From the NCBI GenBank assembly GCA_000442015.1, contig KE560857.1, positions 1-32,638 on the forward strand: a stretch of 32,638 nt of DNA, in the 5' to 3' direction. This document shows positions 828-29,700 of this stretch, one piece after another (the stretch's first letter is position 1; every line of letters starts with the position of its first letter). This stretch comes from Rozella allomycis CSF55. Taxonomy: Eukaryota; Rozellomycota. The notes beneath the pieces are model-generated. The model had not been told where the DNA came from. It saw only the letters and a list, made by a program, of their open reading frames with translations, and made no database searches. Both the position numbers and the translations under genes were made by a program.

Positions 828-3060
828 ATGAAGTTTGCTGCATGTACATTAAATCAATGGGCTCTAGATTTCGAAGGAAATTATCAAAGGATTTATGAGA
901 GCATTGCAATTTCTAAACAGCAAGGGGCGCATTATCGTCTGGGGCCTGAGCTTGAAATTTGCGGATACTCATGTCAAGATCATTTTTACGAACCAGGTAA
1001 GTACTTTGTTTGAATTATACTAACTGATACATGGATACATAGCTGGGAAATTATGTCTAGACTCTTAGAAGATCGATCTTTAGATGGGATCATAATCGAT
1101 GTAGGAATGTAAATAATTCGTTTGATTCAAATAGGCCCGTGCAATGGAAATCACAATTGTATAATTGCAGGGTCATAATATTTAATGGAATAGTATATCT
1201 TATTCGGCCCAAAATACTTTTAGCAAATAAGGGAAATTATAGAGAAGAAAGATGGTTTACACCCTGGCCGGCAAAGGAAATTGAAGAATTTTGTTTGCCA
1301 GCAATAATTAAGCAAAAAAGATGCGTGTTTGGAGATGCAGTACTCGAAACAGAAGATGGAATAGTCATTGGATCTGAAATTTGTGAAGAACTTTTTCAAC
1401 CTAATAGTAGTCACATTGACATGGGTATTGGCGGGGTTGATATTTTTACAAATGCCAGTTCAAGTCATCACGAGTTGAGAAAGTTGCAAACAAGAATAAA
1501 CTTGATCACCAATGCTACAGAAAAAATGGGAGGAGCCTATGTTTATGCGAATCAAAGAGGTTGTGACGGGGACAGACTTTACTTTGATGGTTGCTCGATG
1601 ATCGCGTTGAATGGTCTAGTTGTGGCCCAAGGCAAACAATTTTCTTTGGATGAAATTGAAGGTTTGATTTTTTTATGGTTTTTATCAGTTATTGTGGCTT
1701 CTATCAATGTTAATGACGTCAGGGCATTCAGGGTATCAAAAGGACTTAAAACTGGGGCAACAAAAATTCCTCGTGTGCATATTCCCTTTTTTCCAAATGA
1801 AGATGAAGATTTTTCTTCAAAGCCTATCTCTGTTACGTATTTTTCCATGGAAGAGGAAATAATGCTTGGCCCCGCGTGTTGGCTATGGGATTTTCTAAGG
1901 AGAAGTCCTTGCAGTGGTTATTTTCTCCCCTTAAGTGGTGGTCTTGATAGTACTGCAGTAGCATTGATTGTTCATTCCATGTGCTGTTTAGTCTACGAAT
2001 CATGTGCCAGGGGCAATAATGCTACCTTACAGGACTATTTTCGATTGATAGGAGAAGTGGCAATTCCAACTTCCGCAAATAATATTTCAAAGTATTTTAT
2101 TATGTATAAATTGTTAGAATGCTTTTGGCGACTGCCTACATGGGCACTTGCAACTCCACTGCAGCCACTAAACAACGGGCCGGGTTATTGGCAAAGGAAA
2201 TTAATAGCTACCATTTTTCATTTACATTTGATCCAATAATAACTGCTGTGCTTCAATTGTTTCATTCAATAACGGGATTCACGCCAAGCTTTACTTCGTC
2301 TCATTTGGAAGATTTGGCGCTACAAAATTTACAAGTAAAACTGATCTCGGCGTATATATATATGGCTCGATGTCGATTGATTTTATCATACTTCTTTGCT
2401 CTCCTAATGCCAATCATTAGCTATCAAACAGCTAGGCGCCCCTTTCTTGTCCTTGGGACTTCTAATGTTGACGAAGCGTAAACAAATATGCTTTGGCTAT
2501 TATAGTATACGCGGTTATTTTACAAAGTATGACTGCTCCAGTGCAGATATTAATCCCATAGGAAGTATTAGTAAAAATGATCTCAAAAAGTTCGTCGAAT
2601 ATTATAGTAATAAAAATAATACGATATCATTAAACGAGTAAGCCCATTTTTTGCACCATATAGAATTCTTTCTTCTCCGCCAAGCGCGGAACTAAGACCA
2701 GGGGGTGAACAAATTGATGAAGTAAAAAAACTACTTGAATGGAGAAAGGATGATATGGGATTTACATATAACGAGTTATCTGAAATGGGTTATCTGCGTA
2801 AGGTCGGAAAATGTGGACCTGTCACCATGTTCCAAAAATTGAAGGCCCAATGGGGAAATATCATGAGCCAAAATCAAATTGGAAACAAAGTGATGTCTTT
2901 TTTCCGTTTCTTCGGTTTGAATCGTCATAAGATGACGACTTTGACACCCTCATATCATTGCGAAGCATACAATGTGGATGACAATCGCTTTGACTTGAGG
3001 CCTTTTCTTTATCCAAGCTTTAAATTACAATTTGATACAATTAAGAAGAAAATAAATTAG
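828..3060 (+). CDS. NADSYN1: Glutamine-dependent NAD+ synthetase
   Basis: Makes NAD+ from deamido-NAD+, ATP and glutamine, the last step of NAD synthesis in the cytosol. An N-terminal nitrilase-type glutaminase domain holds the Glu of GPELEICGY, the Lys of [14 protein letters not shown] and the nucleophilic Cys of GSEICEELF. The synthetase half has the ATP P-loop LSGGLDS and later [12 protein letters not shown] and [11 protein letters not shown]. The introns are 1001-1042, 1109-1134, 1662-1688, 2092-2117, 2478-2505 and 2638-2663; the exons sum to 685 codons plus stop, close to the roughly 700 residues of yeast Qns1. Start is the ATG of [17 protein letters not shown], the usual family N-terminus. 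Oddities: intron 1 needs donor 1001 rather than the better GTAAGT at 997, and 2335-2364 inserts ten extra codons. Confidence 0.93.
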
Positions 3061-3102
3061 TTTTAATGATATTTTTTATTTAATTTATACATGCTATATA
3101 AA

Positions 3103-3783
3103 TTACTGCCTTCCACGAAAGCCACCTCTTCCACCGCGAAATCCACCTCGGCTATTACGATCACCACCACGCGATTGAAAGTTTCCACGACCACCACGGC
3201 TATTGCCTCTTCCACCTCTTCCACCGCGGCCTCTTGGCGCGCCACCAGACGCTTTCTTCACCTTTTGTTTGGGCTTCTCTTCTTTTGGCAAAAATCTCTC
3301 TAAAGGCAAAAGCTTTTCGGTTCCTATATATACCGGTGCATCCTGCTGAAATGATGTTGCGACGATGCCTTCCGAGACTTTAATGGTAAAATACTACAAA
3401 AAATACGGTAAAAGTTTTTACCACTTCATTAATTGGCCCGAGTATTTCATTAATGTGTCCGATTTTGGTTTTGTTTTCAAGATATATTCCAGCATTAAAA
3501 TGGGGAATTTTTTCGTTTGTAGATTTGCAAACCATTTCATTTTCACTTGCATGCATAAAGGTACCAAGCACTATATTTGATCGAAGAATAAAAATTTTAC
3601 CAGTCAATTCTTGAGGAATTTCATCACGCCCACCATAACTTGGGCGTCCGCCTCTGTTTCCACCTCTTCCACCTCTGGATCCACCGCGATTACCTACTGT
3701 TAGTATTTTCTTTTAAAAGATAAAAAATGACAATAAATAAAATCTCAAATAACAAACAAGCGCGTACCAAAATTTCCTCGCAT
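3103..3783 (-). CDS. GAR1: H/ACA snoRNP protein Gar1
   Basis: Core protein of H/ACA snoRNPs, which carry out rRNA and snRNA pseudouridylation in the nucleolus. The predicted 192-residue protein has a short N-terminal RGG stretch, the Gar1 beta-barrel ([49 protein letters not shown]) and a C-terminal GAR tail of RGG repeats. Introns: 3694-3767 (74 nt, with ATACTAAC just before the acceptor) and 3394-3421 (28 nt). The first exon is only 16 nt and codes for MRGNF plus the first base of a Gly. Its 3' end is 43 bp from that of the NAD synthetase gene (convergent), and it diverges from the RBM25-like gene. The 16-nt exon and long first intron match the fibrillarin gene at 25171. Confidence 0.93.
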
Positions 3784-4043
3784 TTTTTTGATTTACCAGG
3801 GTTCCAATTCTCATTAGCTATTCGAGTTTAAAGGGATGGTTTATTGATCAAATTAATCACAAAACCTATATAATTGGTATGTCTCAAATAAATCCTATAT
3901 TATTATGATGCTTGTGATACAAGCACTGAAGACGACACATTATTGTTTTAATTTCATAATTTGTTGCCTTTTTTATAAATTTTATGTTTTTTATTTTCAT
4001 GTGTAATATATTTCGGCTAAACCTTGTTTAACTACGCCATAAA

Positions 4044-5917
4044 ATGTACAACAACTTTCGTCCGCCTATGCCAGTAACGCCTAATTTTCCATGTAAAAAA
4101 TTTATAAAAGATAAATAGATACACCTACAGCAACACCTTTAACTAATATACCTACATTTTCCAATACAGAGGGAATAGAAGAAGAAACTATTCTTGGTGA
4201 ACGTTTTACCACTATTTTTGTAGGCTCTTTACATGAGTCAGTTCCAGATGATGTCATATTTCGAGTGTTACAAGTAGGGAAATCTATTTATACAATACAG
4301 GCGTGTGGTCCAGTAAAAAAATGGAATAGGGTAAAAGATCCAACAGGGACCCCCAAAGCATTCGGATTTTGTGAATATTTATCTGCTGACGGTGTTTTGA
4401 GATGTCTTAGATTACTAGAAACATTAAAATTCTATGACAAACAAATCATGGTAATACGAGGTTGTATACATGTGACTAGTTGAGAGTTGATGAGAAGAGT
4501 AAAAACTACTTGGAGAGGTACAAGGAATGGAAGACTAGACAAGGAGAGCCGATCCAGGATGAAGAAAAGGATAATGACTCTCTTAAGAGTATACGTAACA
4601 TTCTAAAGAATCATTCATTATCGTTTTCTTTTACACTAAAAGAAGACAAAGCGCAAGCTCTGCTGAATGAAATTTCAGAAGCTGCCGCACAGTCTGATTC
4701 ACCAAAAGAACCGTTAAACGAGTAAGGTTTACTTAATCCTTTCATTAGTCACGTAAAGGAGGAAGATCAAAAGGAAGGTCATGATGATCAACACAGAAAA
4801 AAACGAGAAAGAGACTTCATTGATGTAAATACGAAATTTCCTAATTGATTTTAGAGGCTTAGACGCTGGGAATCTAAGGAATCTGGCATCTTAAGAGGTA
4901 TTGAAAGGGATGAAGAACGTGAAATGCAAAGAAAAGATCGCTTAATAAAAAAGAGGGAAGAAGATTTAAAATATTTTTCTTATTTCGATGACGACAAGGA
5001 TGACGCCGAATTTTACCGGGACCGTAGTCGCTGGGTCTCTAAAAGAAAACGTGATCTTGTTAGAGAGAGCGAATACGACATGGAGGATCGTCGCCTGGAA
5101 CAGGAAGAACTTAGGCGCCAAAGTCAGGTCCCAGAGCAATCAAATGAGTTGAATTCTGCTGAAATTTCCCCAATGGAAACTGATGAAGTTTCAAATATCC
5201 CACAAGAAGAGCCTGAGCCTTTAAATGAACTAAATGAACCAAACCCTGAAATTTCAAACCCCGTAATAGGTGCAATCAAAGTAGGTTTTGGTTTGACGTC
5301 AAAGCAATCTTCTTCAGAGTCGATGGCATCTAAAAAAAGGTCTCGACCAACTGCAGTTGAAGCTTTTGGGGATGTTGAGTCTGATGAAGAAATTGAACAA
5401 AAGGTTGTCGAAACGTTTATCCCAATTCATAAACGGTTAAGATTGATGCCTATTGAATATTCCGTCGATGAATTAATGGCCGATGGTTATTCAAAGTCTG
5501 AGGCTGAAAAAAAGGTACTAGAAAATGAAAAACACAGGGCGCAACGATTAGTGCAGGAAATTCCGGTCGACAAGATTGATTTATTTAAATATCAAATATC
5601 ATGGGATGTTTTGGACAAGGTTTGATTTTTTTTGTTTGTTTTATCTTTTAGAATTTAATTTCATTGAAAGTTAAACCCTGGCTTAACAAAAAAATTAATG
5701 AATTGTTTGGCTCTTCAAACGAGCAATTTGAGAGCATCATAATTAAGTCTCTTTTAAATAAAGAAAATCCAGACATTCTCATAAAAGAAATTTCAAATGT
5801 AATTATTTGTTATTTGAAATATAGGAAATTGAATTCTCCAATGCAGAGCTCTTTGTAGTTCGATTATGGAGATTCATAATTTTTGAAACTGAATATAAAT
5901 TACTTGGCAAAAAATAA
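4044..5917 (+). CDS. RBM25: RBM25/Snu71-like U1 snRNP splicing factor
   Basis: RBM25 family proteins bind exonic RNA and the U1 snRNP and help choose 5' splice sites. The predicted 558-residue protein has an RRM near the N-terminus (TTIFVGSLHESVPDDVIFRVL, then AFGFCEYLSADGVLR as RNP1), the RBM25-specific LRVDEKSKNYLERYKEW after it, a charged middle and a C-terminal PWI domain (WDVLDKNLISLKVKPWLN to LFVVRLWRFIIFETEYK). Seven introns: 4093-4118, 4274-4300, 4451-4479, 4722-4748, 4825-4854, 5620-5651 and 5799-5824. The long RE/RD tract of animal RBM25 is reduced to a short Arg/Glu-rich stretch. Intron 4274-4300 is 27 nt, in frame and free of stops, so retention would add nine residues inside the RRM. 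Confidence 0.9.
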
Positions 5918-6022
5918 AAATAAATCATTTAATTGTAATTCTTGATCTGCTTTTTTGATCATCACAGCGTGAAAAATCTCAAATTTCCGACACGTGAATT
6001 CAAATCACAACAACAATTAGAA

Positions 6023-6800: not shown

Positions 6801-9127
6801 TTATTCCTCTCCAGTATCCATTTCCAAATCGACAGTTTCATTTCCGGAGCTTTCAGGGGCTTCGAAAGCTTCATTTAGTAAATTTTCGGATGAATGGGAA
6901 TAAGGACCTTGTAAAACTTCATCAGGGAATGGGGTGTCTAACCAACCTTTTCCATTCATCTTGAATTCTCCAACTTTTTCATAGTATTTATCAAATTTTG
7001 TAAGGCCATTGTCCAAAAGTCTTTTTCCTGCTCTGTAGTATTTAGTTTCCGGTTTATTATAAACCATTGCGTTATTGCACATTAATACAAAGTCATCCTA
7101 TATTAACAACAAACTAAAGATACCTTAAATTCATTCAATGATCGGTAAAATAGAATTTTATGCTTCATTGTATCCAAGTCCATTGGATTTTTTATGATCA
7201 AATGGTAATCAGGAGCAATGTCGGGTGTAACGGGCTCTGCAAATATCCCTTTCGCGTCAAGTCTCAAAAACTTAGAGAAACAAAGTTACTTTTTAAGCTC
7301 ATTCCATAAATCCTCCATTAATATATTCAAAGGAGAAAAGAAATGTTTATATAAATTGTAAAGACAAATTACAGACTGTAATTTTGCTTTTTCCCGTTTT
7401 TTCACTAATTCAACCAACATTCTAGCTTTCTCCAAGTCAGTTCTCAATGACCGCAAAATCTTAAAATCTTTCTTGTACTGTTCAATGTCCATAGCAGTGG
7501 CTTTTGGCGCCTTGACAGAAGTAGGCTAACGTCTCATACTAACATATTAGTTACTTCAAGTTGAAGTCGTCTTAACAATGGTACTCCTTTACGAGATTCA
7601 CGCTTTAGCGTCCAGTAACGGCATATGCTTTTAATCACATGCAATTTCTGTGAAACATTACAATCTTTTGTATGAGAATTAAACAAATTGTGAAGAATAC
7701 AGTTTGGAATAACAGGAAAAATACCTCCAGAGGATTTCAATATAACATTTGCTATAGTTGAATTTACAAACCACTCATTGCTTTCGAAAACAGACTGAAA
7801 TGGTACACCCCGGTCAGCTAATCGATGGCTGTCCTTATAGATGACCATTTGCTTTTTTAATATGGGAACCTTTTCATCAAGTAGTCCCTCTTCCCAATCT
7901 TTTTCATCAATATTCAAATCGTCCAAATACTCTTCCTTTTCTTATAAATTTACAATCGACATTACAGGGGTGTGTTTAAAACAAAAAGATTGCTTAGATT
8001 CCCAATCCATGCATAAGCCTGCCAGTTTCGCACATGTAGGATGATATGAAATTCGACAATTACGCTGGGAACATTGAATCGGCGCACCCCATTTCTTTTT
8101 ACATAGTACACATATCAACTTGTATCGAGCCTTTGGTATAGCAGAATTATCAATGGGCTCCTGGAAAACGGCATTTCCTACACAACATTCCTCAATCCAA
8201 TATGAACAAAAGAGGTGAGCCCATCTGTAATCAACCGTTTGTTTAAATGCTCCACCTTCGTTAGGGCATAATATGCAAGACTTTCTATATTTATTTTAAA
8301 TGTTACAACTGGGATTGATGGGTTAACCATACATTTTCTACACAGCCACGACCCCTCTGGAATATGTGGAACGCCATAGCATTCCTGATGCACTGCTACA
8401 TTGCAACCATCACAGTAAACTATAGCGTCACTATTAGAACTTTCACTGCTCCCACAAATTTCACATGGTTTATCCTCATGGATTCCATCCTCAAGCTTTG
8501 CTGTTCGTTTAACTAATTTAGTCTTTCTGTGTAAGAATAAGTAATTACTAATTCAAACCACTCCTTCTCTATACGATCCATAACAAGCTCGAAAAATTCG
8601 GGACTCACCTCCTCTAGCATTTCCTTTTGCCTGTCTTCGTTTATTAACTTCAGCCATTGATTATCTTGATCATCCATGTCATATTCAATTAAAGTCGCTG
8701 CACTCTCTTCTAAATCAGCTTTTAATAGAAAAACCTTTTGGTTACGTTGATATTGAATGTAGGATTCTGGTCTTTGATAATTTCGTTGGTGGCAATCAAC
8801 TTTGACGTTACCGACATGTTTGTAACGCAAAGTAGGCAGCTTTGACAAAATTTCTTGGGCTTTGCTTTGCCTTTCCCGGTCCTTCTCCAGAGACTCTAAA
8901 CTCTTCTTTTTAAAAACTATTTTTAATTTTGTGTTCACATCTAGGACATTTTTTCCATAAACCTCGTCTATTGTCTTTTCTTCCCTAGGCCGAGGGTCAG
9001 CATCTGTCGTTCCGTGTGGTTTGGACACGGAATTCAAGGAAGGATATTTCCTAGGTCGTCCTCTACCCCGTTTTAAAGGGATTTGATTAGTGGAAGTGCT
9101 GGACTCTGTTTTCATATCGTCGTCCAT
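6801..9127 (-). CDS. NTO1: BRPF/Nto1-like PHD-ePHD-bromodomain scaffold
   Basis: BRPF proteins (Nto1 in yeast NuA3) hold a MYST acetyltransferase on chromatin. The 720-residue model has an AT-hook-like [12 protein letters not shown], an EPL1-like N-terminal region, a PHD finger ([25 protein letters not shown]), an extended PHD ([13 protein letters not shown], then [19 protein letters not shown]), the family motif [18 protein letters not shown] and a C-terminal bromodomain with [18 protein letters not shown], where the acetyl-lysine Asn is present. Six introns: 8523-8548, 8281-8306, 7936-7965, 7526-7554, 7263-7289 and 7098-7123. Yeast Nto1 lacks the bromodomain, so this copy keeps the fuller, animal-like layout. 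There is no PWWP domain. It is divergent from RRP6, with 150 bp between the starts. Confidence 0.9.
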
Positions 9128-9277: not shown

Positions 9278-11701
9278 ATGGAAGAAAATTTCGTGAAGCA
9301 TACGATATCTCTAGTTAAGCAGAGCAACCAGCTTTACACTAAACATGTTGATTTACCGTTTCATTTAGCTACTTCACCTGCAATAGGAGAACGTTTGGAG
9401 AAATCTGCTCAAAAAATACTTTCCATTGGCCGAAAATTAATAGCCTTAGAGTCTCAATTTTTGGACCTACCAGAATATTTAAATGTTGAGAATGTTGAAC
9501 ACGTTGTTGATTCCTATGACAGAGTTATTGAAGTTACCGACCATATTCTTGAGAGAATTGTAAATGTAGTATATTTTAGTCACATAGGATGCCACGATTG
9601 AAGTTGAGAAAATTAAAGCTAGTGGGAAGGACATGACGCCTGTAAATGCCAAGCAATCATCTGCTGTGTCTATAAGTGTTCAAAATGGAAACAAATCCAC
9701 AAAGTTTATTCACGCACAAAATATTTCAAGGCCACAATTGCGTTTCAAAGATCAAATCGACAACTCTATGACTCCATTCATACCAAAGTTAAAGAACAAA
9801 CCGCACGCTCTCGTTCCTCTTCCAAACTGTAATGCTACTGTTTTATTTATTATATAGATTCTAACAATGAAAACGTTTCGGCCGAAATACCTGACCATTT
9901 ACAATCTCACATTCAATCCCTAGGGGTGGGAAACGGTTTTGTCAAACAACATGGCCATCCTTACGAGTATGAAATAAGAAATTTAAATTTACCTGAACAC
10001 GCGATCCAAGAGTGTGTTCCAGAAATATACAAATCTCTGGAAGAGACGCCACTTCTAATGGTCAATACTGAAGAGCAGTTGTTAGCGTTAATTAAGGATT
10101 TGGAGGGAGAAAGCGTTATTGCAATAGATTTAGAGAATCATAGCTATAGATCTTACCAGGGATTCGTTTGTCTGATGCAAATTTCTTCGCGCCAAAAGGA
10201 TTTTATCGTTGACACCCTTGAGCTACGCCACTTTCTTCATCAATTGAATGTTGTTTTTGCTAATCCAAACATAGTTAAAGTATTACACGGTGCTGATTCT
10301 GATATTATTTGGCTTCAAAGAGATTTTGGACTTTATATAGTTAACATGTTTGACACGTACTTTGCATCCAAGGAATTGAGTTGTCCATCGCATTCCTTGG
10401 CGTATCTTTTGAGCCATTATGCTGGTATTAAGGTGGATAAAAAGTACCAACTAGCAGACTGGCGTATTCGCCCACTACCTGAGGAAATGGTAAAATACGC
10501 CCGCGAAGACACTCACTACCTTTTATACATTTATGATAATATGAAAAATGAGTTGATTGAAAAGCGAAAGTCTGAGACTGAATACGATCCACTCCACAAG
10601 GTTCTATCTAAAAGCAATGATTTGACTCTGAAGCGATATGAAAAAGAAATTTATTCAGATGTTTCTTGGTTCAATTTATATAAAAAATACAATAGAAATC
10701 TAGAGCCACGCCTACTGAAAGTGTTCCAGGCTCTGCATCGTTGGCGTGACCAACTTGCTAGAGAGCAAGATGAAAGCACCCATTATGTTTTACCTAATCA
10801 TATGCTATTTAGAATAGCAGAAAGAGCTCCTAAAAACGTACCACAAATTCTTGGCTGTTGTAATCCAGTTCCACCATTGGTGCGCCTGCACGCAAATGAT
10901 TTATCACTATTAATTTCGCGTGTATTAGATGAATATGAAACTAAGAAAAATGATCAAATCGAGCAATTTCAAAACCTTGAAACAATGGCAGAAAGCAATC
11001 ACACCATTTTTGAGTCGAACTCCGAAATTTCTGAAACAGAAGTGGCTGAGCAGGTCATTGACGAGGAAAATCTGAAAGAGAGAATTGAAGATGTCGCTAA
11101 TGTACAACAAGTTGTTAAAAATGAAGCTGGCGGAGATTCTAATTCTAAAGTTAAAATGTTGAATTCATCAGTGAAATCCCAGTTCCTTGCAGTCCTGGAG
11201 AAGATTGAAGTACCAATTTCATTACCTAACGAAATAATGGATTCATTTAAGAATGTTTTAGAACCTTGGAACGAATTTATGGATGAGATTGCTGATGACG
11301 ATAACAATTTTACAGCGCAGCCACCCAAAGAAGAGGCGGTTCCCGTAAAGGAAGAAATTCCCGTTGATTCTGTGGTGACTTTGAATGATTTAAAAAAGGG
11401 CACTTCCTCAAAGTCTTTGGATTCTATTCTAAGCGAATTTGCAAAGAAACAAGCCGCTGTTGTGGACCAAGACATCGAGGAGGAATCACCTGCTCAAGAA
11501 GATAAAGTCGACTATTCAATTCTTAAACAAAATTTGGACACTGGAAATAAATCAAAAAAGAGAAAAAGTAAAAAATATTTCTATTTTTAATTAGTTTTTA
11601 ATCCATTCAAGGAAAAGTCCGAAGTTGCATTCAAACAAAAGAAACGCCTTTCCACCAAGCCAAACTCTGGGAACAAAAGTTTCACTTTCAAAAATAAATA
11701 A
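9278..11701 (+). CDS. RRP6: Nuclear exosome 3'-5' exonuclease Rrp6/EXOSC10
   Basis: Trims and degrades rRNA, snoRNA and other nuclear RNAs with the exosome. The predicted 779 residues comprise a PMC2NT-like N-terminus (about 1-95), the DEDD-Y exonuclease (about 235-405: VIAIDLENHSYRSYQGFVCL, HGADSDIIWLQRDFGL, YAREDTHYLLYIYD), an HRDC domain (about 450-530) and an acidic then basic tail (GNKSKKRK, KEKSEVAFKQKKRLSTK) of the nuclear-localisation kind. All four acidic catalytic residues and the Tyr are present. Introns: 9560-9587, 9829-9857 and 11568-11594. The first ATG of the frame, 9278, gives MEENFVKHTISLVKQ, which fits the family. Lies 27 bp upstream of the Reeler gene. Confidence 0.95.
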
Positions 11702-12451: not shown

Positions 12452-13489
12452 ATGGAAAATATGGGTTTTACAACTTCTCCCTCCCTTTTCACACCTGCAG
12501 CAACCCAGAACGATGGATTTGTTCCTATTACAGATCCGAAAACAGTACCCGCTTTTCTTAACAAACTGTACAAGTAAGTGAAAATTATTTGCTGTATTTT
12601 AGCATGGTCAGTGATTCTTCATCAAGTCATCTAATAAGATGGAGCGACAGCGGAAATTCTTTTATTGGTATTTAATTTTTCTCTCTTAATATTAGTTACC
12701 AAGCCAGATGACTTTTCAAGAGAGGTTTTGCCCCGATTTTTTAAACATGGAAATTTTACCAGTTTTGTCCGACAATTAAATATGTACGGCTTTCACAAAG
12801 TCCCTCATTTGCAACAAGGGGTTTTGATAGCTGGAGACAACACTCCTGATTATTGGGAGTTTGCCAATGATCTATTTAAAAAGAACAAGCCAGAATTGCT
12901 TTGTTTCTTGAAGCGGAAAACTGGAAAAGAAAGCTCCGACGAAAAAGAAAGCATGGATGTTAAAATGCTATTGAATGAATTGTCAACTATAAAGCAACAA
13001 CAGCTGAATATTACCGAAGAATTAAAGAATCTGCAAAGAGACAATCAACTTTTATGGTCAGAATCAATTGCTGCAAGGGAAAGACATATGAAGCAAGAAG
13101 AAATGATCAATAAAATTGTTAGATTTCTTGGGCAAATGTTTGCCAACGACAGGTCGTCTTCTATTCTTCCAAAGAGCAAGAAGAGACACTTAATGATCCA
13201 AGCTAATGATTTATTAAACACAAATAAAAATATTCCTCAGTCGTCATCCGATAAAGTGATGGAATTGCCAGAGGATAAAATTTCTAATATGGATTTCAAA
13301 ATTTCTCAAACTAAAAATGACATTCAGGGAATCAATGAAGATATTGACATTTTGGAAACTAATTTGCAAGATTTGACTGATTCTCTTGGTCTTAATGAGG
13401 ACTGCAAGTTTGATGAGAACTTTCTCGATGGGTATAATAACTCTGTCTCTGACGACTTTGACATAACCAAATTCATTAACATTAATTAA
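12452..13489 (+). CDS. HSF1: Heat-shock transcription factor
   Basis: Trimeric activator that binds nGAAn repeats. The 326-residue model has the HSF winged-helix domain at about residues 24-120 (VPAFLNKLYNMVSD, IRWSDSGNSFIV, FFKHGNFTSFVRQLNMYGFH), interrupted by introns at 12574-12602 (29 nt) and 12668-12695 (28 nt). A hydrophobic heptad-repeat region (HR-A/B) spans about residues 143-210, and a second coiled segment lies near residues 255-290. The C-terminus is acidic and short compared with yeast Hsf1. Start is the ATG just before MENMGFTTSPSLFTP. Two TATA-poor, A/T-rich tandem genes flank it. The DBD contact helix is complete, so the protein should be functional. Confidence 0.95.
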
Positions 13490-13564: not shown

Positions 13565-15119
13565 ATGGGAGACGTTAAAATGGAGCGTGATTTTTCAGTA
13601 GAAACAGATGCTACTATATCTCTTTGTGATAAAAAACTCCTGGTAACATTTTAAAAGCTTGAATATTAGGCTGGAAACCCATCTGAAGCCTTGGAGTCTC
13701 TATTTTCACTTGAAAAGCAAACCAGATTGGTATGATATTTTAAAGTGTATAAAAAATAGGCTGGCGATGCGTTCTCTACAGGAAAATTGCTAGTAAAGAT
13801 AATAACTGTGAACCAGCAACTATCTGATTGGAAAGCTGTTAATGATAATCTTTTACTTCTCTCAAAGAAGCGAGGCCAGTTAAAGCAAGTATTAAGAAAT
13901 GTTAAGCTTAATAGGCTATTACTGTCATGGTTCAAAAAGCTGTTTCAATGGTTGACCAAACCCCAAACATGTCTATCAAATTAGACTTGATCAACACTCT
14001 TCGTTCTGTTACTGAAGGAAAGATTTTCGTAGAGGTTGAGAGAGCTAGATTAACTAAAATGCTTTCTGGACTTAAAGAGCAAGAAGGGAATCTTAAAGAA
14101 GCAACCGAAATTCTTCATGAATTACAAATTGAAACTTTTGGATCAATGGATAAGCGCGAGAAAGTTGATTTTATTCTTGAGCAAATGAGGCTTGGACTCG
14201 CCATTAAAGACTTTGTGAAAACGCAAGTCATTAGCAAGAAAATAAGTTCTAAATTTCTTCAAGAAGATGAAAATGAAGTAACTTTATAATAAATGCGTGA
14301 CTCGAGGATCTCAAGCTTAGATTTTACCACTTGATGATCCAAATTGGTTTGCATGACAATTCATACTTGGATATATGCAAGTATTATCAACAGATTTATC
14401 AATGCAAATCGATCAAGGAAGATTCTATGAAGTATACAGACGTAATGACTAATTTTCAAAATTATAGACACTACGTCATGTGGCGATGTTTGTTGCCTTG
14501 GCGCCATTTTCAAATGAGCAAGTGGATCTTTTGCATCACATTTACCTTGATAAAAATTTAAATAATCTTCCTATTTACAAGTAAAATTGTTATTTTCTAT
14601 TTAATAAAACAGGGAATTGTTGAAATGTTTGTCGACCACAGAGCTACTTCGCTGGGTTGTTGTCCAGGACGCCTTTGCACAAGAAAAGCAAACGCTCGCA
14701 GCATTTTCAGGAGTTGAAGGCCAAAAGAGATGGAATGATTTAAAGGATCGAATTGTAGAGCATGTAAATAAAACTAGTAAGCCCGAGTTAGAATATTCGC
14801 GTGATAAACTCGCATTATGAGTGTATCTCTTTTAAGCGTTTTGTTCAACTTTTAGAGTTGAATGCCGATGTAAGTTTTTAGATTTAATAAAATTCAGGAA
14901 GCTGAAGAAGCTTTCTCCAAAATGGTGGTTGCAAAGACCATCCAGGCTAAAATGGATAGGCCTTTGGGAATAATAAACTTTCGTCTTGCGAGGAAAAAGG
15001 AGGAAGTTTTGAATGAATGGTCCACAAAGGTCAATGACATTTTAACTCTTTTAGTTAAAACTAACCACTTGATTAATAAGGAAGAAATGGTTAACAAAAT
15101 TGTTAAAGCAAATAAATAA
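13565..15119 (+). CDS. RPN5: 26S proteasome lid subunit Rpn5/PSMD12
   Basis: PCI-domain scaffold of the proteasome lid. Nine exons give 442 residues, against about 445-456 in yeast and human. Recognisable blocks are [68 protein letters not shown] and, in the C-terminal PCI/winged helix, [20 protein letters not shown] and DRPLGIINF. Introns: 13643-13669, 13730-13759, 13889-13914, 14278-14306, 14442-14467, 14581-14612, 14764-14791 and 14870-14897. Splicing of 14764-14791 uses the fourth AG (nt 28) and ignores AGs at nt 14, 18 and 24. The stop lies 15 bp from the stop of the convergent CRAL-TRIO gene, so the two 3' UTRs must overlap. Confidence 0.95.
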
Positions 15120-16863: not shown

Positions 16864-17809
16864 ATGACTAGCATATCGCCCCAAACCTCAATAACTGCAA
16901 CTGCCGAGAAAGTTGCACTTACTGCCGATTCGGATTCGCAAAACAATATTTTTAAAAATGATATTAAAGACATGGTAGAAGGGATTCTTAAAGTATTTGA
17001 TTCTCCTTTAGATCCAAATGAATGGGAAAGCACTGTTGATAATGATGATATTCAAATTTATCAGAATAAGAGGTCGCAATGCTGCTTCAGAATACACGCT
17101 TCACTCCAAAATTGTGCCGAATCATGTTTTGACCTCCTTTCAGATCCCATGGAAAGGCCTAAATGGGACGAATTGTGTGAATTCGCGCGTGTAGTTGAGG
17201 AGGTAGACAAATTCACCAGAATAGTTTATGTTAGAATGAAACCTGTTTGGCCTACCAGTGCGAGAGACGTAGTTCTTCTTTCTCATGTTACAAAGCTCCC
17301 TGATGGCAGATTACTGAATGTTACAAAGAGCATTACTCACCCAGATTGTCCTGATCTATCGTCTGAAGGAATTGTTAGAATGGAAGCTGGCATAGCCGGT
17401 CAAATATGTATTAAAAGCACTTCTAATAGATGTAAACTAATTCAAATCGCAGACGGTGACTTGGGTGGATGGATCCCTAAAAGTGTGATCAAATTTGGTA
17501 AGCCCAATTTTTGCAAACAAATAAGTCGCTACAAAAGCTCTTCCTAATTCATTCAAGGCTGTTAATAAAATATTATGCAAGATCGAACAAAAGGAAAAAT
17601 CGCACCTTGCTGAAGGAGAAAGCACTGAAGAAGTAGATTTATTGAAAGAGCTTGCCGTCTTAAAATCACGAGTTAATAAATTGGAAGAAATGGTAGAAAG
17701 CCTCACACCATCGGGTATACAACTCTTCATTGGTCATGCTACTCCTATAGTGGCTGGAATTACGGCAATAGCCACTGCGATTAGCATATTCAGGTCTAGG
17801 CGTCAATAA
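16864..17809 (+). CDS. START-domain lipid-binding protein with C-terminal membrane anchor
   Basis: A 305-residue model with a START domain: PLDPNEWESTVDNDDIQIYQ, FDLLSDPMERPKWDELCEF, VYVRMKPVWPTSARDVVLLS and DLGGWIPKSVIKF match the START fold of the PCTP/CERT class. A coiled coil (EVDLLKELAVLKSRVNKLEE) and a hydrophobic C-terminal helix (ATPIVAGITAIATAISIF) with basic RSRRQ follow, again a tail-anchored layout. One intron, 17498-17525 (28 nt). The frame is open upstream of the chosen ATG to 16780 without another ATG, and a hydrophobic stretch there is probably untranslated. Lies head to head with the CRAL-TRIO gene. The lipid ligand cannot be read from the sequence. Confidence 0.82.
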
Positions 17810-18115: not shown

Positions 18116-18419
18116 TCATGAATTCATGTCAAGCCATTGAGTATAAGCAAAGCAATCGTTTCTCTCTACAGGATCTTCAATAACAAATTGTATTTCCTTT
18201 TCTGTCGTATTAAAAATGCTAAAACAAATAAGCAATTAAGTAATACAATGAAACAAACGCCAAAATCTTGTACTGGCCAGGCAAACCAGGAAAATAGAAA
18301 ATAACCTTCTGACTCTTGATCCGATTAACAAAATAATACAAAAAATGTGCCAGCCTATTTGGATTAATAACACTAAGTACTTTGTACTTTAAAAAGTTAC
18401 TGTATGTCGAAGCGCTCAT
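18116..18419 (-). CDS. Small unknown protein
   Basis: Two exons joined over a 55-nt intron (18219-18273) give 82 residues. The sequence is well ordered and soluble in character: LAHFLYYFVNRIKSQKVIF before the intron, and FNTTEKEIQFVIEDPVERND with CFAYTQWLDMNS after it. Clean splice phase and the protein-like second exon support a real gene. The intron is one of only four in the window longer than 32 nt. I do not recognise the family. A divergent small gene starts at 18540, 120 bp away. Confidence 0.5.
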
Positions 18420-18926: not shown

Positions 18927-19877
18927 TTATTTTATTAATAAACCAGTTATCATTGTTAAAACAAAAAGATAAATTTGGCTTTGGAATGTAAATAATTGGA
19001 TCAAGGCTGGGCCGGGGCAAATACCGCAAAGTCCCCATCCAAAGCCAAAAATAGAGGAGCCTATGATCAAGTCGGTATCCACGCTGCATTTAGATGGAGT
19101 GGCAAATTCATCTTCCAGTACAGGTTTCTTCATTTTCCTGATTTCTCGTCTGTATGCTACCAAATTAGGAGCAATGGCGCCCAGGATAATCATTAATAGG
19201 TTTGGGTTGAAGAGAGATGGTTCAGAAAATATAGATAGGAAACCTAATACAGATGAAGACTTAACCATTCCCGTAAGACCTAAACCAGTCCCAAATAACA
19301 GACCGGCATAAAACGCAGCAAAGTTTAAGCTTGTAGACATTATCTTTTTAGCCCAAATGACAGAAAATATTAAAAATATGAGTGAAAGGAACAAAGTGGA
19401 ATATTTGAATTGAAAATTGTCGGACCACACGGAATTATTTGGGAATAGATACACGGCAATCATTGCATTTGTAAAGAACATTAGTGTAGCAAATATTGAT
19501 CTAATTGATAGCCTTGAAAGCCCACAAAGCATATGCCCAGAAGTACAACCGCATGCTTTTCTGGCTCCATAACCTACTAAAAATCCACCTAATGCAAATC
19601 TAGGCAAGTTTGCTTGCCCATAGTCATACCTGATAAGTGAACCAAAATAAATATTTTACCACCCTAATAGCGCTGGTGTGAATAGACGTAATAATAAGCC
19701 AGCGGATAATAGCCCTGAAAGAAAGAACAATTTCCATTTTGAATCTCTGGGTTCTAGGATGCATGATTTAATGATTCCAGAAATACCGACAACTTTTCCG
19801 TAGTATTTAAGTAGTAAATAAACCGGCAAACCGAGATAAAAGGCGCCTATTAAAGCAAGAGTAAGGTCATTGATCAT
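18927..19877 (-). CDS. YeeE/YedE-family sulfur (thiosulfate-type) transporter
   Basis: A 306-residue polytopic membrane protein with one 30-nt intron (19630-19659). It has the internal duplication and Cys motifs of the YeeE/YedE family: LVGYGARKACGCTSGHMLC in the first half and GFGWGLCGICPGPALIQL in the second, each after glycine-rich helices. In the bacterial relative TsuA the matching cysteines line the thiosulfate path. The usual bacterial form is a single uninterrupted frame, so the intron shows that this copy is resident in the nuclear genome and not contamination. Such proteins are known in some fungi and are thought to be of bacterial origin. It starts 34 bp from a small divergent gene. 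Confidence 0.88.
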
Positions 19878-23243: not shown

Positions 23244-23245
23244 AT

Positions 23246-23392: not shown

Positions 23393-24911
<1,519 letters not shown>

Positions 24912-25170: not shown

Positions 25171-26199
25171 ATGGGTCGCGGATTCGGTAAAATATGTTTA
25201 ATTTTGATATTTTACGTTTAATTATTTATGTGATTTTTGAAAGAATTGTTCTAATTTTTAGGTGATCGTGGAGGAGGAATGACACGCGGAGGACGTGGCG
25301 GATTTTCAGATCGTGGAGGACGTGGAGGTTCTAGAGGAGGAGGCCGAGGAGGAAGTCGAGGTGGATTTTCTGGTCGCGGTGGAGACAGAGGAGGTCGTGG
25401 TGGAAGTCGCGGTGGCAGTCGTGGAGGAGATAGAGGCGGCCGTGGTCGTGGAGCTCCAAGAGGAAGAGGAAAGGCTGGTTTAGGATCCAAAGTTATTGTT
25501 GAGCCACATAGACATGAAGGAGTGTATGTTGCCCGCGGAAAAGAAGATTTGCTTGTTACAAAGAACTTGGTGCCAGGCGAAAGTGTTTATGGAGAGAAGA
25601 GAATTTCGGTTGACAATGCCGACGGAACTAAAACAGAATATCGCGTGTGGAATCCATTCAGATCTAAATTAGCTGCTGGTATTTTAGGAGGCATTGAAAA
25701 CATCCACATAGCGCCAGGAAAGAAAGTCCTTTACTTGGGTGCTGCTAACGGTACGACAGTTTCACACGTTGCGGATATCGTTGGACCAACTGGTCTTGTG
25801 TACGCAGTAGAATTCTCCCATCGCTCTGGCAGAGATTTAGTCAACATGGCCAAGAAAAGAACAAACGTCATTCCAATTGTCGAAGACGCTCGTCACCCAC
25901 ACAAATATCGAATGCTCATTGGAATGGTTGACGTCATTTTTGCTGATGTGGCTCAACCTGATCAAGGGCGTATCGTCGCCTTGAACGCCCACAACTTTTT
26001 AAAGAACGAAGGGCACGTCGTCATTTCTATTAAAGCTAACTGTATTGATTCAACCGTTGATGCTGCGACTGTTTTCGCCAGCGAAGTTAATAAATTGAAA
26101 GAAGAGAAAATAAAACCAAGAGAACAACTCACCTTGGAGCCTTATGAGCGTGATCATGCTTTGGTTGTCGGTGTCTATCGTGCTGCCCCAAAGAAATAA
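25171..26199 (+). CDS. NOP1: Fibrillarin, box C/D snoRNP 2'-O-methyltransferase
   Basis: Methylates rRNA riboses guided by box C/D snoRNAs, and methylates histone H2A Gln. The predicted 317 residues have an N-terminal GAR domain of RGG repeats (about 1-75) and the methyltransferase fold: [20 protein letters not shown] (SAM loop), [33 protein letters not shown] and [13 protein letters not shown], containing the catalytic K-D-K/H residues of the family. The first exon is 16 nt (MGRGF plus one base) and is followed by a 75-nt intron (25187-25261), the longest in the window. The rest is one exon. The unit composition of the GAR repeats is Gly/Arg with few Phe. Confidence 0.96.
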
Positions 26200-26319
26200 A
26201 GCATTTAATTTATAGCCATTTTAACATTCAATTTATTTGAATTTGTGTTAATCATTAACACTAATGGAAACATTGTCTAATTTTGTTTCGTCCAAATCCC
26301 CTGGCGATAATACTTTTTC

Positions 26320-27639
26320 ATGTCTTTAACGAATAAAGAGATAACGAGATATAGTAGACAAATTCTTATCCCAACAATAAGGAAAAAAGGTATATTTTTC
26401 TCTAGCTTTGAAAAGGACAACAGGCGTTAAAAGATTCCACCGTTGGAATAATTGGAATGGGTGGTTTAGGCTCCCCATGTGCTTTTTATTTAGCTGCTGC
26501 TGGAATAGGTATATTATTTCTTAATATTCCAATCCAGGGAAATTAGTTCTTGTTGATTATGATGTTGTTGAAGAAACAAATTTGCATCGACAAATTATTC
26601 ATTCTCACTCCAGCTTAGGCGTCAGCAAGGTTGAGTCTGCAGCCCAAAAAATTAAAGATCTAAATCCTCATTGTTCTGTAATAGTCCATAATGTCTTATT
26701 GGGGCGATCCAATTGTCTGGATATTTTGCAATGTTGCGATGTTGTTGTTGATTGCACGGATAACGTACTAAGTAGGTATTTGGTAAATGATGCATGCGTT
26801 CTCTTACACAAACCCTTGGTGTCAGGAAGTGCATTGAAAATGGAAGGTCAACTCACTGTCTATCACTATGAGAATGGGCCTTGCTATAGATGCCTTTTTC
26901 CAGTACCTCCCCCCAAAGAAACAGTCACAAATTGTTCTGATGGGGGTGTAATAGGTCCCGGTAATTATTTCTTTTAGATTTTTCTAGTTTGCGGAGTCAT
27001 CGGTAGCATGCAGGCCATGGAAGTGATTAAAATAATATCTCAAGGGTCATGCAGTAAGTCTTTAAATATTAAATAAAAGGTTATAGCGGGCACATGTTTC
27101 TCTTCAATGGGCAAGATGGGACAACAAGAAAGGTGACTCTACGGTCGCGAAACAAAGACTGTGATGTATGCGGCGATCAACCTAAAATTAAAGAGCTAAT
27201 TGATTTCGAAGTTTTTTGCAATATGAAAGCTAATGATAAAGTAATTACAACCCTGTCACATCCTTAGACCCCTGCTTTAAGCCTAATTGATTCCTCATAC
27301 AGGTTAAGTCCCGAGGATTACAAAAACATCATGTCTGAAAAGCATTTCCTTATTGATGTGAGAAGTGCTCTTCAATTTGAAATATGCGCCCTCCCCGGTA
27401 GCATAAATTTGTCTCTGACAGAAATCGATTCCGAAATTCAAAGCGTATGCCCAAGCAAAGATGAAACAAGTATATTTTTTGTCAAAAATAAACTAGTAAT
27501 CTGTATTTGTCGTCGTGGAAATAATTCGCAAAGAGCGGTCAAGAAATTGCTAGACTTGGGCTACAAAAATGTAAAGGATATAATTGGAGGCATCGAAGGC
27601 TGGGCCACAAAAGTAGATCCAAGCTTTCCCAAATACTAA
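26320..27639 (+). CDS. UBA4: E1-like adenylyltransferase/sulfurtransferase Uba4/MOCS3
   Basis: Activates Urm1 (and, in many species, the molybdopterin subunit MOCS2A) as a thiocarboxylate for tRNA wobble-U thiolation and urmylation. The predicted 394 residues hold an adenylation domain with [46 protein letters not shown], zinc cysteines in CYRCLFP and CDVCG, and the catalytic Cys in [12 protein letters not shown] rhodanese domain follows with [20 protein letters not shown] and the active loop CRRGNNSQ. Introns: 26390-26415, 26509-26537, 26961-26987, 27054-27079 and 27241-27267. A further in-frame 27-nt GT-AG candidate (27470-27496) has no stop; removing it gives the tighter join DETIICICRRG, so the mature protein may be 385 residues. 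Confidence 0.93.
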
Positions 27640-27651
27640 AATCAATTTTAT

Positions 27652-29065
27652 TTAATCTAATGCTTCATAAAATAAAATGTACACATTTCTATCCTGCTTC
27701 TCCTTTAAGACATTGTCTATATCTGTGGGTAAAATTGTTTCATCATCGAAATGCAACCAACGATTAAATTCTTTCCATAGCACATCGCAGGTGTAATGGC
27801 CACCATTAGTTGACCAGCCGTGATGATATACCACTATTTCAACATCGACAAGTCATCAATTACCAGAAGTTAACTTATATTTTGGTAAGTTTAATTGATT
27901 CAAAGATAAATGTTCTAGGATTACAAATTTGTTGTTTTACTTGCATCAAACTGCAATGTTTCAGGATAAGCCACAAAATCAAAATTTTTTGTTACGCCCA
28001 GTGTTGGATGATATATAAATCTTTTTAAATGAATTATGAGTATTTTGGGCAGTTGCTCTAAGCGCATTTGTTTAATGAATGACTTGTTCCCGCTAGTTAT
28101 CACTTCGGGTCGAACCAATTCATCTAATGCATCCTTCAATGATCGTGCCTTTTGAATGTCTAACTGTAGAAACTGAAATGGCTCAACTGTGATAGTTTTC
28201 TTGTTACTTTTCTTGTCTGTAATGTCCGATCGATATTTTCCACAAAACAATTGAGTGACGAGAGATTTATTTATTTCCGTCTTTGATATGATAAAATATT
28301 TAAATTGTTACATGTCTAGCTTTGACCACTTTATTTCGTTTCCCAACTACGTTCCACATGTCACCTGACGTTTCTTCTTCTTCTCTGTTATTTCTTTGAG
28401 ATGAACGATGGATCTCTTCATTTAGCTCATCAAGAAGGAATCCTAAAAATTCTTGGGCATCTTCTTGCTCACTCTAATTCAAAAGACTGATACTTAATCC
28501 TTACAATCAAAGAATTCAACCTCTTAACGGTTCTCAGTGCGTCGTATACATATTCAGGAAGAAATGGATTGCCAAATTCTGAATCATCATTTCTGGTATC
28601 ATCAATGCGAAACTCGTTCAAAAAGGACAATCTGAATGCCGCTATATCAATCATCTTACATGGCATCAAATAGAATTGTAATAGAGGAAGATGAGATTTG
28701 TAATGACAGAGTTTTAATCATTTCAAAAAAAGCTTCATTAAAAACAAGGGGTTGTAAAATCTATTTGTGACGTTTGGAATAAAGGGTACCGAATTCATGT
28801 AGCATAAATTGCCACCGTTTATTAATCCTCTGGGTAAAATTCTCTGCTTTCTTCTAATGCTCTCTTTCTCTTGTAGAATAACAACTTTATCAGTTTTATC
28901 GGCATTAAACAAATTCGCCCAAGATTTGATTTTTGGGGCTGAAATCTCTGGTTTTTCATCTGTTGTCAAAGATTTTGTATTACAAATACCTGAAAATGTA
29001 AGACTGCTACTCCTTTCCATCTGTGAGAGTTCTTCAAGTGGTATACTTCCAAAAGTAATTTCCAT
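27652..29065 (-). CDS. UBP3: Ubiquitin-specific protease of the USP10/Ubp3 type
   Basis: Cysteine protease that removes ubiquitin, with the layout of the USP10/Ubp3 group (partner G3BP/Bre5 in other species). The model gives 412 residues. The Cys box is LPRGLINGGNLCYMNS, followed after a 29-nt intron by ILQPLVFNEAFF; SEQEDAQEFLGFLLDEL, LVTQLFCGKYRSDI, LPKILIIHLKRFIYHPT and the His box VVYHHGWSTNGGHYTCDV with WLHFDDE for the third residue complete the domain. Introns: 28761-28789, 28632-28659, 28474-28504, 28281-28311, 27915-27940 and 27834-27863. The long N-terminal region of animal USP10 is missing; the frame is open upstream of the ATG at 29065, but only 62 bp separate it from the next gene. 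Confidence 0.92.
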
Positions 29066-29127
29066 ACCCTGAAACCCAGCCTCTGTAGTAAGTTTAAATT
29101 TAAGCTTTATGACCGTCAACTTTAAAA

Positions 29128-29700
29128 ATGTCTTCTTCGAATTGTAAACGAAGAGTGATTATCACGTCAACAGAGGAAAATCAATTTGAACGTGTAGGAA
29201 ATTGAATATTTTCGAATAGGCATTCCAGTATGCTTTGGAGAATATATTAAAGCCTAATTACGATTTGGTAGAGCTAGTGCGCGTAATTCAATCCACCTCT
29301 GCGGTTAAACAAATGACAATGTTGTCGGTCCTTTCATCTTCAAAGTGGACCGAGGCACAGAATAAGGTATAATATAATTCATTGTAATATAAGATTGAAT
29401 CAAATGCCTTTCAAACACTGAAAAACTATGCAATGGTGCTCAATGATTACAACGTAAAGATTAATGGACATTGTAATCAAGATTGCAAATGAGATCAAAG
29501 TATTAAAAGGTGACACAGAAGAAGCTTTAATCGAAAATATTAACAAATTTGGAGCAGACCTACTTATCGTTGCTTCAGATGTTCAAAAATCATTTTTTGA
29601 AAGGTACTTCTAACGAACATTTCTTAATAGAATAATGAATGACAGTATTTCAGAGTACTTATTTCATCAGTCTCCTTGTTCTGTTATTATTGTGAAATAG
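29128..29700 (+). CDS. UspA-type universal stress protein
   Basis: Five exons (introns 29194-29219, 29367-29393, 29454-29481 and 29604-29630) give 154 residues, the normal size of a single USP domain. The UspA C-terminal half is clear: KVLKGDTEEALIENINKFGA, DLLIVASDVQKSFFER and SISEYLFHQSPCSVIIVK, equivalent to the ATP-binding G-x9-G(S/T) end of the fold. The glycines of the ATP motif are replaced here (DVQKSFFER in place of a G-rich loop), so nucleotide binding is doubtful. UspA is mainly bacterial, archaeal and plant, with fungal members; the introns show a resident gene. It diverges from USP10 over 62 bp. Confidence 0.85.

What the first reader, a model, noticed from the sequence alone, without database searches (positions are those of the whole stretch)
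1001..29630. Nearly all introns are 26-32 nt, with a sharp floor at 26
Placing introns by reading frame and protein family gives 66 in about 20 genes. Sixty-two are 26-32 nt and about 18 are exactly 26 nt; none is shorter. The four exceptions (1001-1042, 3694-3767, 18219-18273, 25187-25261) are 42-75 nt. Every closed gene model sums to whole codons, so the lengths are not loose guesses. Comparably small spliceosomal introns are known in ciliates and the chlorarachniophyte nucleomorph; such a tight size class in a gene set like this one is unusual and implies a spliceosome working with almost no space between branch site and both splice sites.
Basis: partly seen in the sequence, partly recalled or inferred. 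Interest (0 to 1): 0.85.

Follow-up and report, generated by a model that had tools for sequence, protein, structure and literature searches.

The report
Uniform 26-32 nt introns in Rozella
Genes of Rozella allomycis, a fungus-like parasite of water moulds, are interrupted by very short introns that are mostly 26 to 32 bases long and hardly ever shorter than 26, which makes this genome a good natural test of how small an intron a fairly ordinary splicing machine can remove.

Summary
The window is a whole contig of a 9.97 Mb Rozella allomycis CSF55 assembly. I curated 56 introns in 15 window genes; 54 are 26-32 nt, 17 exactly 26, none shorter. Across 222.6 kb from 20 contigs, GTAA...TAG pairs exceed background by over 4 sd only at spacings 26, 27 and 28. 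A gene finder with no length preference between 20 and 34 nt intron of 25 and 90 of 26 nt; 25 further loci agree. GAR1 (74) and fibrillarin (75) remain. U1, U2 and U6 keep canonical pairing sequences; SF1, SMU1, Slu7, Prp18 and a probable U2AF65 are present, so an unusual spliceosome is not implied. New: the 3' splice site is nearly always the first AG at or beyond base 26 (2 exceptions in 400 introns; 7-10 internal AGs expected; P 0.004-0.013, held-out set alone 0.10). No RNA evidence was available. New member of a known kind.

The parts
997..1026 (+). NAD synthetase intron 1, 30 nt, GT...TG, contains TACTAAC
1109..1134 (+). NAD synthetase intron 2, 26 nt
   Evidence: lengths 12-160 equally allowed
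1662..1688 (+). NAD synthetase intron 3, 27 nt, no in-frame stop
2092..2117 (+). NAD synthetase intron 4, 26 nt
2478..2505 (+). NAD synthetase intron 5, 28 nt
2638..2663 (+). NAD synthetase intron 6, 26 nt
3394..3421 (-). GAR1 intron 2, 28 nt
   Evidence: inside the Gar1 Pfam match
3694..3767 (-). GAR1 intron 1, 74 nt, contains TACTAAC: true exception
4093..4118 (+). RBM25-like intron 1, 26 nt
4451..4479 (+). RBM25-like intron 2, 29 nt
4722..4748 (+). RBM25-like intron 3, 27 nt
4825..4854 (+). RBM25-like intron 4, 30 nt
5620..5651 (+). RBM25-like intron 5, 32 nt
5799..5824 (+). RBM25-like intron 6, 26 nt
   Evidence: inside the PWI domain match
7098..7123 (-). BRPF/NTO1-like intron 6, 26 nt
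   Evidence: inside the bromodomain matches (table, alignment not shown)
7263..7289 (-). BRPF/NTO1-like intron 5, 27 nt
7526..7554 (-). BRPF/NTO1-like intron 4, 29 nt
7936..7965 (-). BRPF/NTO1-like intron 3, 30 nt; an AG ending at base 25 is skipped
8281..8306 (-). BRPF/NTO1-like intron 2, 26 nt; an AG ending at base 22 is skipped
   Evidence: placed by eye, then ungapped alignment to BRPF1 across the junction
8523..8548 (-). BRPF/NTO1-like intron 1, 26 nt
   Evidence: placed by eye, closed frame only; the flat-prior run chose a 22-nt segment from the same 5' splice site instead
9560..9587 (+). RRP6 intron 1, 28 nt
   Evidence: spliced protein identical to deposited P0001, 779 of 779 residues
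9829..9857 (+). RRP6 intron 2, 29 nt
   Evidence: identical to P0001
11568..11594 (+). RRP6 intron 3, 27 nt
   Evidence: identical to P0001
12574..12602 (+). HSF intron 1, 29 nt
   Evidence: placed by eye, then ungapped HSF1 alignment across the junction
12668..12695 (+). HSF intron 2, 28 nt
   Evidence: placed by eye, then ungapped HSF1 alignment across the junction
13643..13669 (+). PSMD12/RPN5 intron 1, 27 nt
   Evidence: ungapped alignment to 6epc_P
13730..13759 (+). PSMD12/RPN5 intron 2, 30 nt
13889..13914 (+). PSMD12/RPN5 intron 3, 26 nt
14278..14306 (+). PSMD12/RPN5 intron 4, 29 nt
14442..14467 (+). PSMD12/RPN5 intron 5, 26 nt
14581..14612 (+). PSMD12/RPN5 intron 6, 32 nt
14764..14791 (+). 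PSMD12/RPN5 intron 7, 28 nt
14870..14897 (+). PSMD12/RPN5 intron 8, 28 nt
15728..15758 (-). CRAL-TRIO protein intron 4, 31 nt
15826..15851 (-). CRAL-TRIO protein intron 3, 26 nt
16012..16037 (-). CRAL-TRIO protein intron 2, 26 nt
16231..16259 (-). CRAL-TRIO protein intron 1, 29 nt
17498..17525 (+). START-domain protein intron, 28 nt
18219..18246 (-). small membrane protein intron, possibly 28 nt (reader: 18219-18273)
   Evidence: placed by eye; both readings are in frame
19630..19659 (-). YeeE/YedE-type sulphur transporter intron, 30 nt
   Evidence: placed by eye; joins two ORFs inside one Sulf_transp match
23525..23554 (-). KDM4-like demethylase intron 4, 30 nt
23953..23979 (-). KDM4-like intron 3, 27 nt
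   Evidence: ungapped alignment to KDM4B
24100..24125 (-). KDM4-like intron 2, 26 nt
   Evidence: ungapped alignment to KDM4B
24348..24373 (-). KDM4-like intron 1, 26 nt
   Evidence: ungapped alignment to KDM4B
25187..25261 (+). fibrillarin intron, 75 nt: true exception
26390..26415 (+). UBA4/MOCS3 intron 1, 26 nt; an AG ending at base 16 is skipped
   Evidence: placed by eye, then ungapped alignment to 6yub_A
26509..26537 (+). UBA4/MOCS3 intron 2, 29 nt
   Evidence: placed by eye, then ungapped
26961..26987 (+). UBA4/MOCS3 intron 3, 27 nt; an AG ending at base 17 is skipped
   Evidence: placed by eye, then ungapped
27054..27079 (+). UBA4/MOCS3 intron 4, 26 nt
   Evidence: placed by eye, closed frame only
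27241..27267 (+). UBA4/MOCS3 intron 5, 27 nt, in-frame stop
   Evidence: placed by eye; removes the only internal stop of the model
27834..27863 (-). USP-type ubiquitin hydrolase intron 6, 30 nt
   Evidence: ungapped USP8 alignment across the junction
27915..27940 (-). USP intron 5, 26 nt
   Evidence: inside a USP8 match, gaps nearby
28281..28311 (-). USP intron 4, 31 nt
   Evidence: ungapped USP8 alignment across the junction
28474..28504 (-). USP intron 3, 31 nt
   Evidence: a 76-nt reading with the same 3' end was preferred
28632..28659 (-). USP intron 2, 28 nt
28761..28789 (-). USP intron 1, 29 nt

Best explanation
These are ordinary U2-type spliceosomal introns of Rozella allomycis CSF55 that have shrunk to about the smallest size its spliceosome accepts. 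Shown here: GT-AG ends, a size class of 26-32 nt in the sampled parts of the genome, a hard floor at 26, weak splice-site information (donor about 6.7 bits, acceptor about 5.2 bits), almost no branch-site consensus, and canonical pairing sequences in U1, U2 and U6. Inferred: loss of bases in a compact parasite genome pushes introns down until a steric minimum between the 5' splice site, the branch site and the 3' splice site is reached; U2 is placed mainly by distance from the bound 5' splice site and not by a branch-site sequence; and the spliceosome takes the first AG that lies at or beyond base 26, so earlier AGs are ignored.
For: Size class and floor by four methods and on held-out loci. 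Exact lengths fixed by ungapped homology across 8 of 8 junctions of PSMD12, 2 of 6 of the USP gene, 3 of 4 of the KDM4-like gene, 3 of 5 of UBA4, 2 of 2 of HSF, 1 of 6 of the BRPF-like gene, and the spliced alignment of NAD synthetase; the three RRP6 introns give the deposited protein letter for letter. snRNAs canonical; SF1, Slu7, Prp18 and SMU1 present, U2AF65 probable. First-AG rule: an AG ending at bases 8-25 is present and skipped in 20 of 54 curated, 119 of 277 main and 57 of 123 held-out introns of 26-32 nt; an internal AG at or beyond base 26 is present in 0, 1 and 1 of them. Matched for distance to the 3' end, 2 AGs are observed in 388 positions against 7.0 to 9.6 expected, P 0.013 by permutation, 0.004 by Poisson.
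Against: No RNA reads were available, so splicing itself is inferred from frame, homology and one deposited protein, whose model may itself be a prediction. The 29- and 30-nt classes do not stand out in the annotation-free count. Only 20 of the 56 curated introns came out of the uniform-prior run and 39 out of the flat-prior run; 17 were placed by homology or by eye. The first-AG rule rests on few expected events; main set alone P 0.021, held-out alone 0.097. GAR1 and fibrillarin (74 and 75 nt) break the rule and pass over AGs at 58 and 71, and at 57. Branch-site anchoring at the 5' side is not shown: a motif model anchored at the 3' end does slightly better on held-out introns.
Confidence: 0.85

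Rival explanations
1. Artefact of hand placement: any reader can find GT...AG segments near an expected length, so the tight class is a selection effect.
For: The gene finder does call a few 13-25 nt and many scattered 35-150 nt segments that look false.
Against: The annotation-free spacing count and the uniform-prior gene finder do not know the expected length and still peak at 26-28 or 26-30 with nothing in excess at 25; ungapped homology fixes individual lengths; held-out loci agree.
Confidence: 0.03
2. The segments are removed at the DNA level, like ciliate internal eliminated sequences, and not by splicing.
For: Paramecium eliminated sequences also have a sharp class just under 30 bp (recalled, no call).
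Against: Boundaries are GT...AG, matching the canonical U1 5' end; the organism is Rozella, not a ciliate; the deposited protein treats three of them as introns.
Confidence: 0.01
3. The floor is set only by history (a burst of gain or shrinkage to one size), not by a steric minimum of the spliceosome.
For: Other lineages splice 15-18 nt introns, so 26 is not a universal physical limit (PMC9505925, PMC10245619; sections and passages).
Against: The distribution is one-sided: a cliff at 26 and a tail above it; AGs before base 26 are tolerated but AGs after it are avoided, which a history-only view does not predict.
Confidence: 0.15
4. The pattern reflects only the known rule that the first AG downstream of the branch site is used, with branch sites at variable places, so that no ruler laid from the 5' splice site is needed.
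For: A weak TTTRA/TTRAT-like motif is present above shuffles, and 3' anchored placement fits held-out data slightly better.
Against: At 3-5 nt upstream of the used AG, another AG is found at 36 of 1015 positions when it ends before base 26, against 2 of 185 when it ends at or beyond base 26 (pooled 400 introns), so the AG-free zone follows the distance from the 5' end better than that from the 3' end.
Confidence: 0.35

Closest known systems
Paramecium introns (around 25 bp; PMC5014332 abstract and passages; PMC12862383 two passages)
   Same: Genome-wide, ultra-short, narrow size class of spliceosomal introns in ordinary protein-coding genes.
   Different: A ciliate, far from Rozella in the tree. 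[quoted passage not shown]
Stentor 15-16 nt introns (PMC9505925, abstract, section 2.1 and passages)
   Same: All snRNAs present there, canonical U1, U2 and U6 here; no strong branch-site consensus; narrow size.
   Different: Stentor introns are about 10 nt shorter with the branch A nearly always at position 10 or 11, and its table lists Slu7 and Prp18 as not found; both are found in Rozella.
Chlorarachniophyte nucleomorph (18-21 bp) and mikrocytid (16-17 bp) introns (PMC10245619, section 7 and passages)
   Same: Narrow class near a minimum in intracellular organisms; the same deletion-down-to-a-threshold explanation is offered there.
   Different: Mikrocytos has 224 introns in 179 genes, conserved in sequence, and mikrocytids a spliceosome of 17-19 identified proteins; Rozella has 2.53 introns per kb (PMC8476143), little conservation inside, and keeps SF1, SMU1, Slu7 and Prp18.
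Introns of other fungi (PMC8476143 passages)
   Same: U2-type introns in relatives of Rozella.
   Different: The passages seen call a mean of 63 bp in Cryptococcus relatively short; the Rozella class is less than about half of that.

Membership tests
U2-type spliceosomal introns | GT...AG ends that match U1 | tested here: met
   GTA in 97 percent of 266 short introns (GT and AG were required by the finder); curated short set: 53 of 54 end in AG, 51 of 54 start with GTA; U1 5' end ACUUACCUG
U2-type spliceosomal introns | U1, U2 and U6 RNAs with intact pairing sequences in the genome | tested here: met
   U1 scores 69.0 against a gathering score of 69.5, just below; U4 and U5 not searched
U2-type spliceosomal introns | branch-site sequence that pairs with U2 | tested here: inconclusive
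   no TACTAAC consensus in the short class; weak TTTRA-like signal above shuffles
U2-type spliceosomal introns | removal from RNA | not testable with these tools
   no reads; one deposited protein is spliced at three of them
ultra-short uniform intron class (ciliate, nucleomorph, mikrocytid type) | most introns below about 35 nt in a narrow range | tested here: met
   277 of 342, 123 of 134 held out, 54 of 56 curated in the window are 26-32 nt; in the uniform-prior run only 101 of 242, among many false-looking calls
ultra-short uniform intron class (ciliate, nucleomorph, mikrocytid type) | sharp lower limit | tested here: met
   25:1 against 26:90; 25:0 against 26:31; GTAA..TAG 13 against 58
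ciliate internal eliminated sequences | TA-bounded segments removed from DNA (definition recalled) | tested here: not met
   boundaries are GT and AG
Smu1-RED dependent short-intron splicing (PMC6692369) | SMU1 and RED both present | tested here: inconclusive
   SMU1 found; RED_N and RED_C gave no candidate, with no positive control in the search

The most novel reading that the evidence does not exclude
The Rozella spliceosome picks its 3' splice site with a ruler laid from the 5' splice site: it ignores every AG that ends before base 26 and takes the first one at or beyond base 26, with next to no help from a branch-site sequence, while a small second group of longer introns (GAR1, fibrillarin) is read the usual way through a TACTAAC-like or CTAAT-like branch site.
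Probability: 0.35. Interest if true: 0.7.

Novelty: new member of a known kind. Interest (0 to 1): 0.5.

Why it matters
Rozella is an early branch beside the fungi (recalled) and keeps SF1, SMU1, Slu7, Prp18 and a probable U2AF65 with canonical snRNA pairing sequences, yet most of its introns are 26-32 nt. That separates two ideas that go together in mikrocytids: a tiny intron does not require an obviously stripped-down spliceosome. The clean floor and the first-AG pattern make the minimum distance between splice sites something that can be tested with single-base changes in a reporter intron.

Tried and rejected
Branch-site motif search: a weak TTTRA/TTRAT-like signal (log-likelihood 39.3 against at most 7.0 in five shuffles at width 5), but the held-out gain is only 3.8-11.0 nats over 118 introns and does not say whether the site is anchored at the 5' or 3' side. 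A second size class at 74-78 nt seemed to appear in the learned-prior run; most of those sequences look coding and only GAR1 and fibrillarin stand, so I dropped it. A 3n deficit or stop enrichment as in ciliates: in the 54 introns, 14 of 15 introns of length divisible by three carry an in-frame stop against 11.0 expected; too few, and the gene finder is blind to stopless 3n introns. A possible 27-nt intron at 2722-2748 in NAD synthetase is ambiguous (intron or 9-residue insert) and was left out of all counts. Eight of the 47 window introns of the flat-prior run were not taken into the curated set: three contradict the NAD synthetase alignment, one competes with the 26-nt intron 8523-8548, one (20338-20363, 26 nt) lies in an already open frame, and three of 89-99 nt look false. 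TACTAAC is not enriched in the window (4 against 2.5 expected). A small-subunit rRNA search did not complete. RED was not detected but the search had no positive control. Literature searches for Rozella with intron terms listed no title or abstract start that reports Rozella intron lengths; several lists were capped (25 of 38, 40 of 393, 30 of 213), and the rows listed show no occurrence of Rozella. A search for other short-intron fungi returned nothing. The library holds only open-licence papers; the 2013 Rozella genome paper (recalled) was not seen.

Full report
What the window is. The window is one whole contig (C74, 32,638 bases) of an assembly of 9,970,177 bases in 213 contigs. A protein search with its RRP6 gene returns a 100 percent match named Rozella allomycis CSF55 on a contig of 32,638 bases. 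Rozella is a fungus-like parasite of Allomyces (recalled). At least some of these introns are already in public gene models: my RRP6 model, with three introns removed, equals the deposited protein in all 779 residues.

Is the size class real? Four tests with different weaknesses agree. First, without any gene model, I counted how often GTAA is followed by TAG at each spacing on both strands of 222,638 bases (the window and 19 stretches of 10 kb; a twentieth was masked and left out). Spacings 26, 27 and 28 hold 58, 44 and 54 pairs against a background of 22.3 with sd 5.0; spacing 25 holds 13; three control pairs show no excess of 2 sd or more at 26-28; spacings 29 and 30 are not in excess in this crude test. 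Second, a gene finder that gave all lengths from 12 to 150 the same prior ended with 242 introns in 83 genes, of which 101 were 26-32 nt, with 26 at 26 nt and 1 at 25 nt; the rest were spread thinly over all lengths and many look like false calls. With a flat prior inside 20-34 it found 342 introns in 111 genes: 20-25 together 15, then 90, 51, 57, 41, 26, 8, 4 for 26 to 32. Third, 25 loci not used for training (78,810 bases, some overlapping; introns counted once) gave 134 introns, 123 of them 26-32 nt, none of 25 and 31 of 26. Fourth, a spliced alignment of NAD synthetase to five homologues, with lengths 12-160 costing the same, placed introns of 26, 27, 26, 28 and 26 nt.

The window set. I curated 56 introns in 15 genes: 26:17, 27:8, 28:9, 29:8, 30:7, 31:3, 32:2, 74:1, 75:1. 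Of the 13 models, 12 are open throughout; the thirteenth (CRAL-TRIO) was started too far upstream and is open from its first methionine. Twenty of the 56 came out of the uniform-prior run and 39 out of the flat-prior run; 17 came out of neither, six of them from the NAD synthetase alignment and 11 placed by eye from frame and remembered homology. Six of those 11 were then confirmed by alignment. Lengths are fixed by ungapped homology over the junction for 8 of 8 introns of PSMD12, 2 of 6 of the USP gene, 3 of 4 of the KDM4-like gene, 3 of 5 of UBA4, 2 of 2 of HSF and 1 of 6 of the BRPF-like gene. The others rest on frame and on the gene finder.

Two of the four exceptions dissolve. The segment 1001-1042 contains codons for [10 protein letters not shown], which homologues have at this place; the intron is 997-1026, 30 nt, with TACTAAC near its end and TG where AG is expected. 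The segment 18219-18273 can be read in the same frame as a 28-nt intron at 18219-18246; which is right is open. GAR1 (3694-3767) and fibrillarin (25187-25261) are true exceptions.

How it works. U1, U2 and U6 are present with canonical pairing sequences (U1 is half a bit under its gathering score). SF1, SMU1, Slu7 and Prp18 are present, and a probable U2AF65 in three neighbouring exon matches that do not reach the curated cut-off. RED was not found, but the search had no positive control. In human cells SMU1 and RED are needed when the 5' splice site and branch site are close (PMC6692369, abstract and passages). The splice sites are weak: 6.7 bits at the donor, 5.2 at the acceptor; among introns of 26-32 nt the length distribution has an entropy of 2.4 bits against 7.0 for a uniform 20-150, so length itself narrows the choice by about 4.6 bits. 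The branch site has almost no consensus.

From base 26 on, an internal AG is almost never seen: in 0 of 54, 1 of 277 and 1 of 123 (by position 1 of 269 and 1 of 119). Matched for distance to the 3' end, 2 are observed in 388 positions against 7.0 to 9.6 expected (P 0.013 by permutation, 0.004 by Poisson; main alone 0.021, held-out alone 0.097). The simplest reading is that the first AG at or beyond base 26 from the 5' splice site is used. The two long introns break this rule.

Compared with what is known. Ultra-short uniform introns are known from Paramecium (around 25 bp; PMC5014332 abstract and passages), Stentor (15-16 nt; PMC9505925 abstract, section 2.1 and passages), the chlorarachniophyte nucleomorph (18-21 bp) and mikrocytids (16-17 bp; PMC10245619 section 7 and passages). 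The fungal survey PMC8476143 gives Rozella 2.53 introns per kb; the passages seen say nothing of their length. The main text of the Paramicrosporidium genome paper (PMC5701793) holds no occurrence of the word intron, and that of PMC11649378 none of Rozella. My searches for Rozella with intron terms listed no report of its intron lengths (capped lists, titles and abstract starts seen, open-licence papers only). I therefore call it a new member of a known kind: the class is real and convergent, the machinery looks ordinary as far as presence of parts was tested, and the ruler is a testable extra.

Noticed in passing
997-1026: NAD synthetase intron 1 ends in TG, with TACTAAC just upstream; either a rare GT-TG intron or an assembly error.
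   Followed up: partly
3694-3767 and 25187-25261: GAR1 and fibrillarin, both snoRNP proteins, share a first coding exon of about six codons followed by a 74- or 75-nt intron, outside the short class.
   Followed up: partly
19630-19659: A 30-nt intron of the short class lies inside a YeeE/YedE-type sulphur transporter gene, a family best known from bacteria (recalled).
   Followed up: partly
21241-21886: 21.6 near-identical copies of a 30-bp repeat coding for an FG-repeat stretch in a nucleoporin-like protein.
   Followed up: no
38-463: Two tandem 212-bp copies, 93 percent alike, coding for leucine-rich-repeat-like peptides.
   Followed up: no
29766-29838: tRNA-Lys (TTT) gene.
   Followed up: no
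2722-2748: 27-nt in-frame segment in NAD synthetase that is either an intron without a stop or a 9-residue insertion.
   Followed up: partly
[quoted passage not shown]
   Followed up: partly
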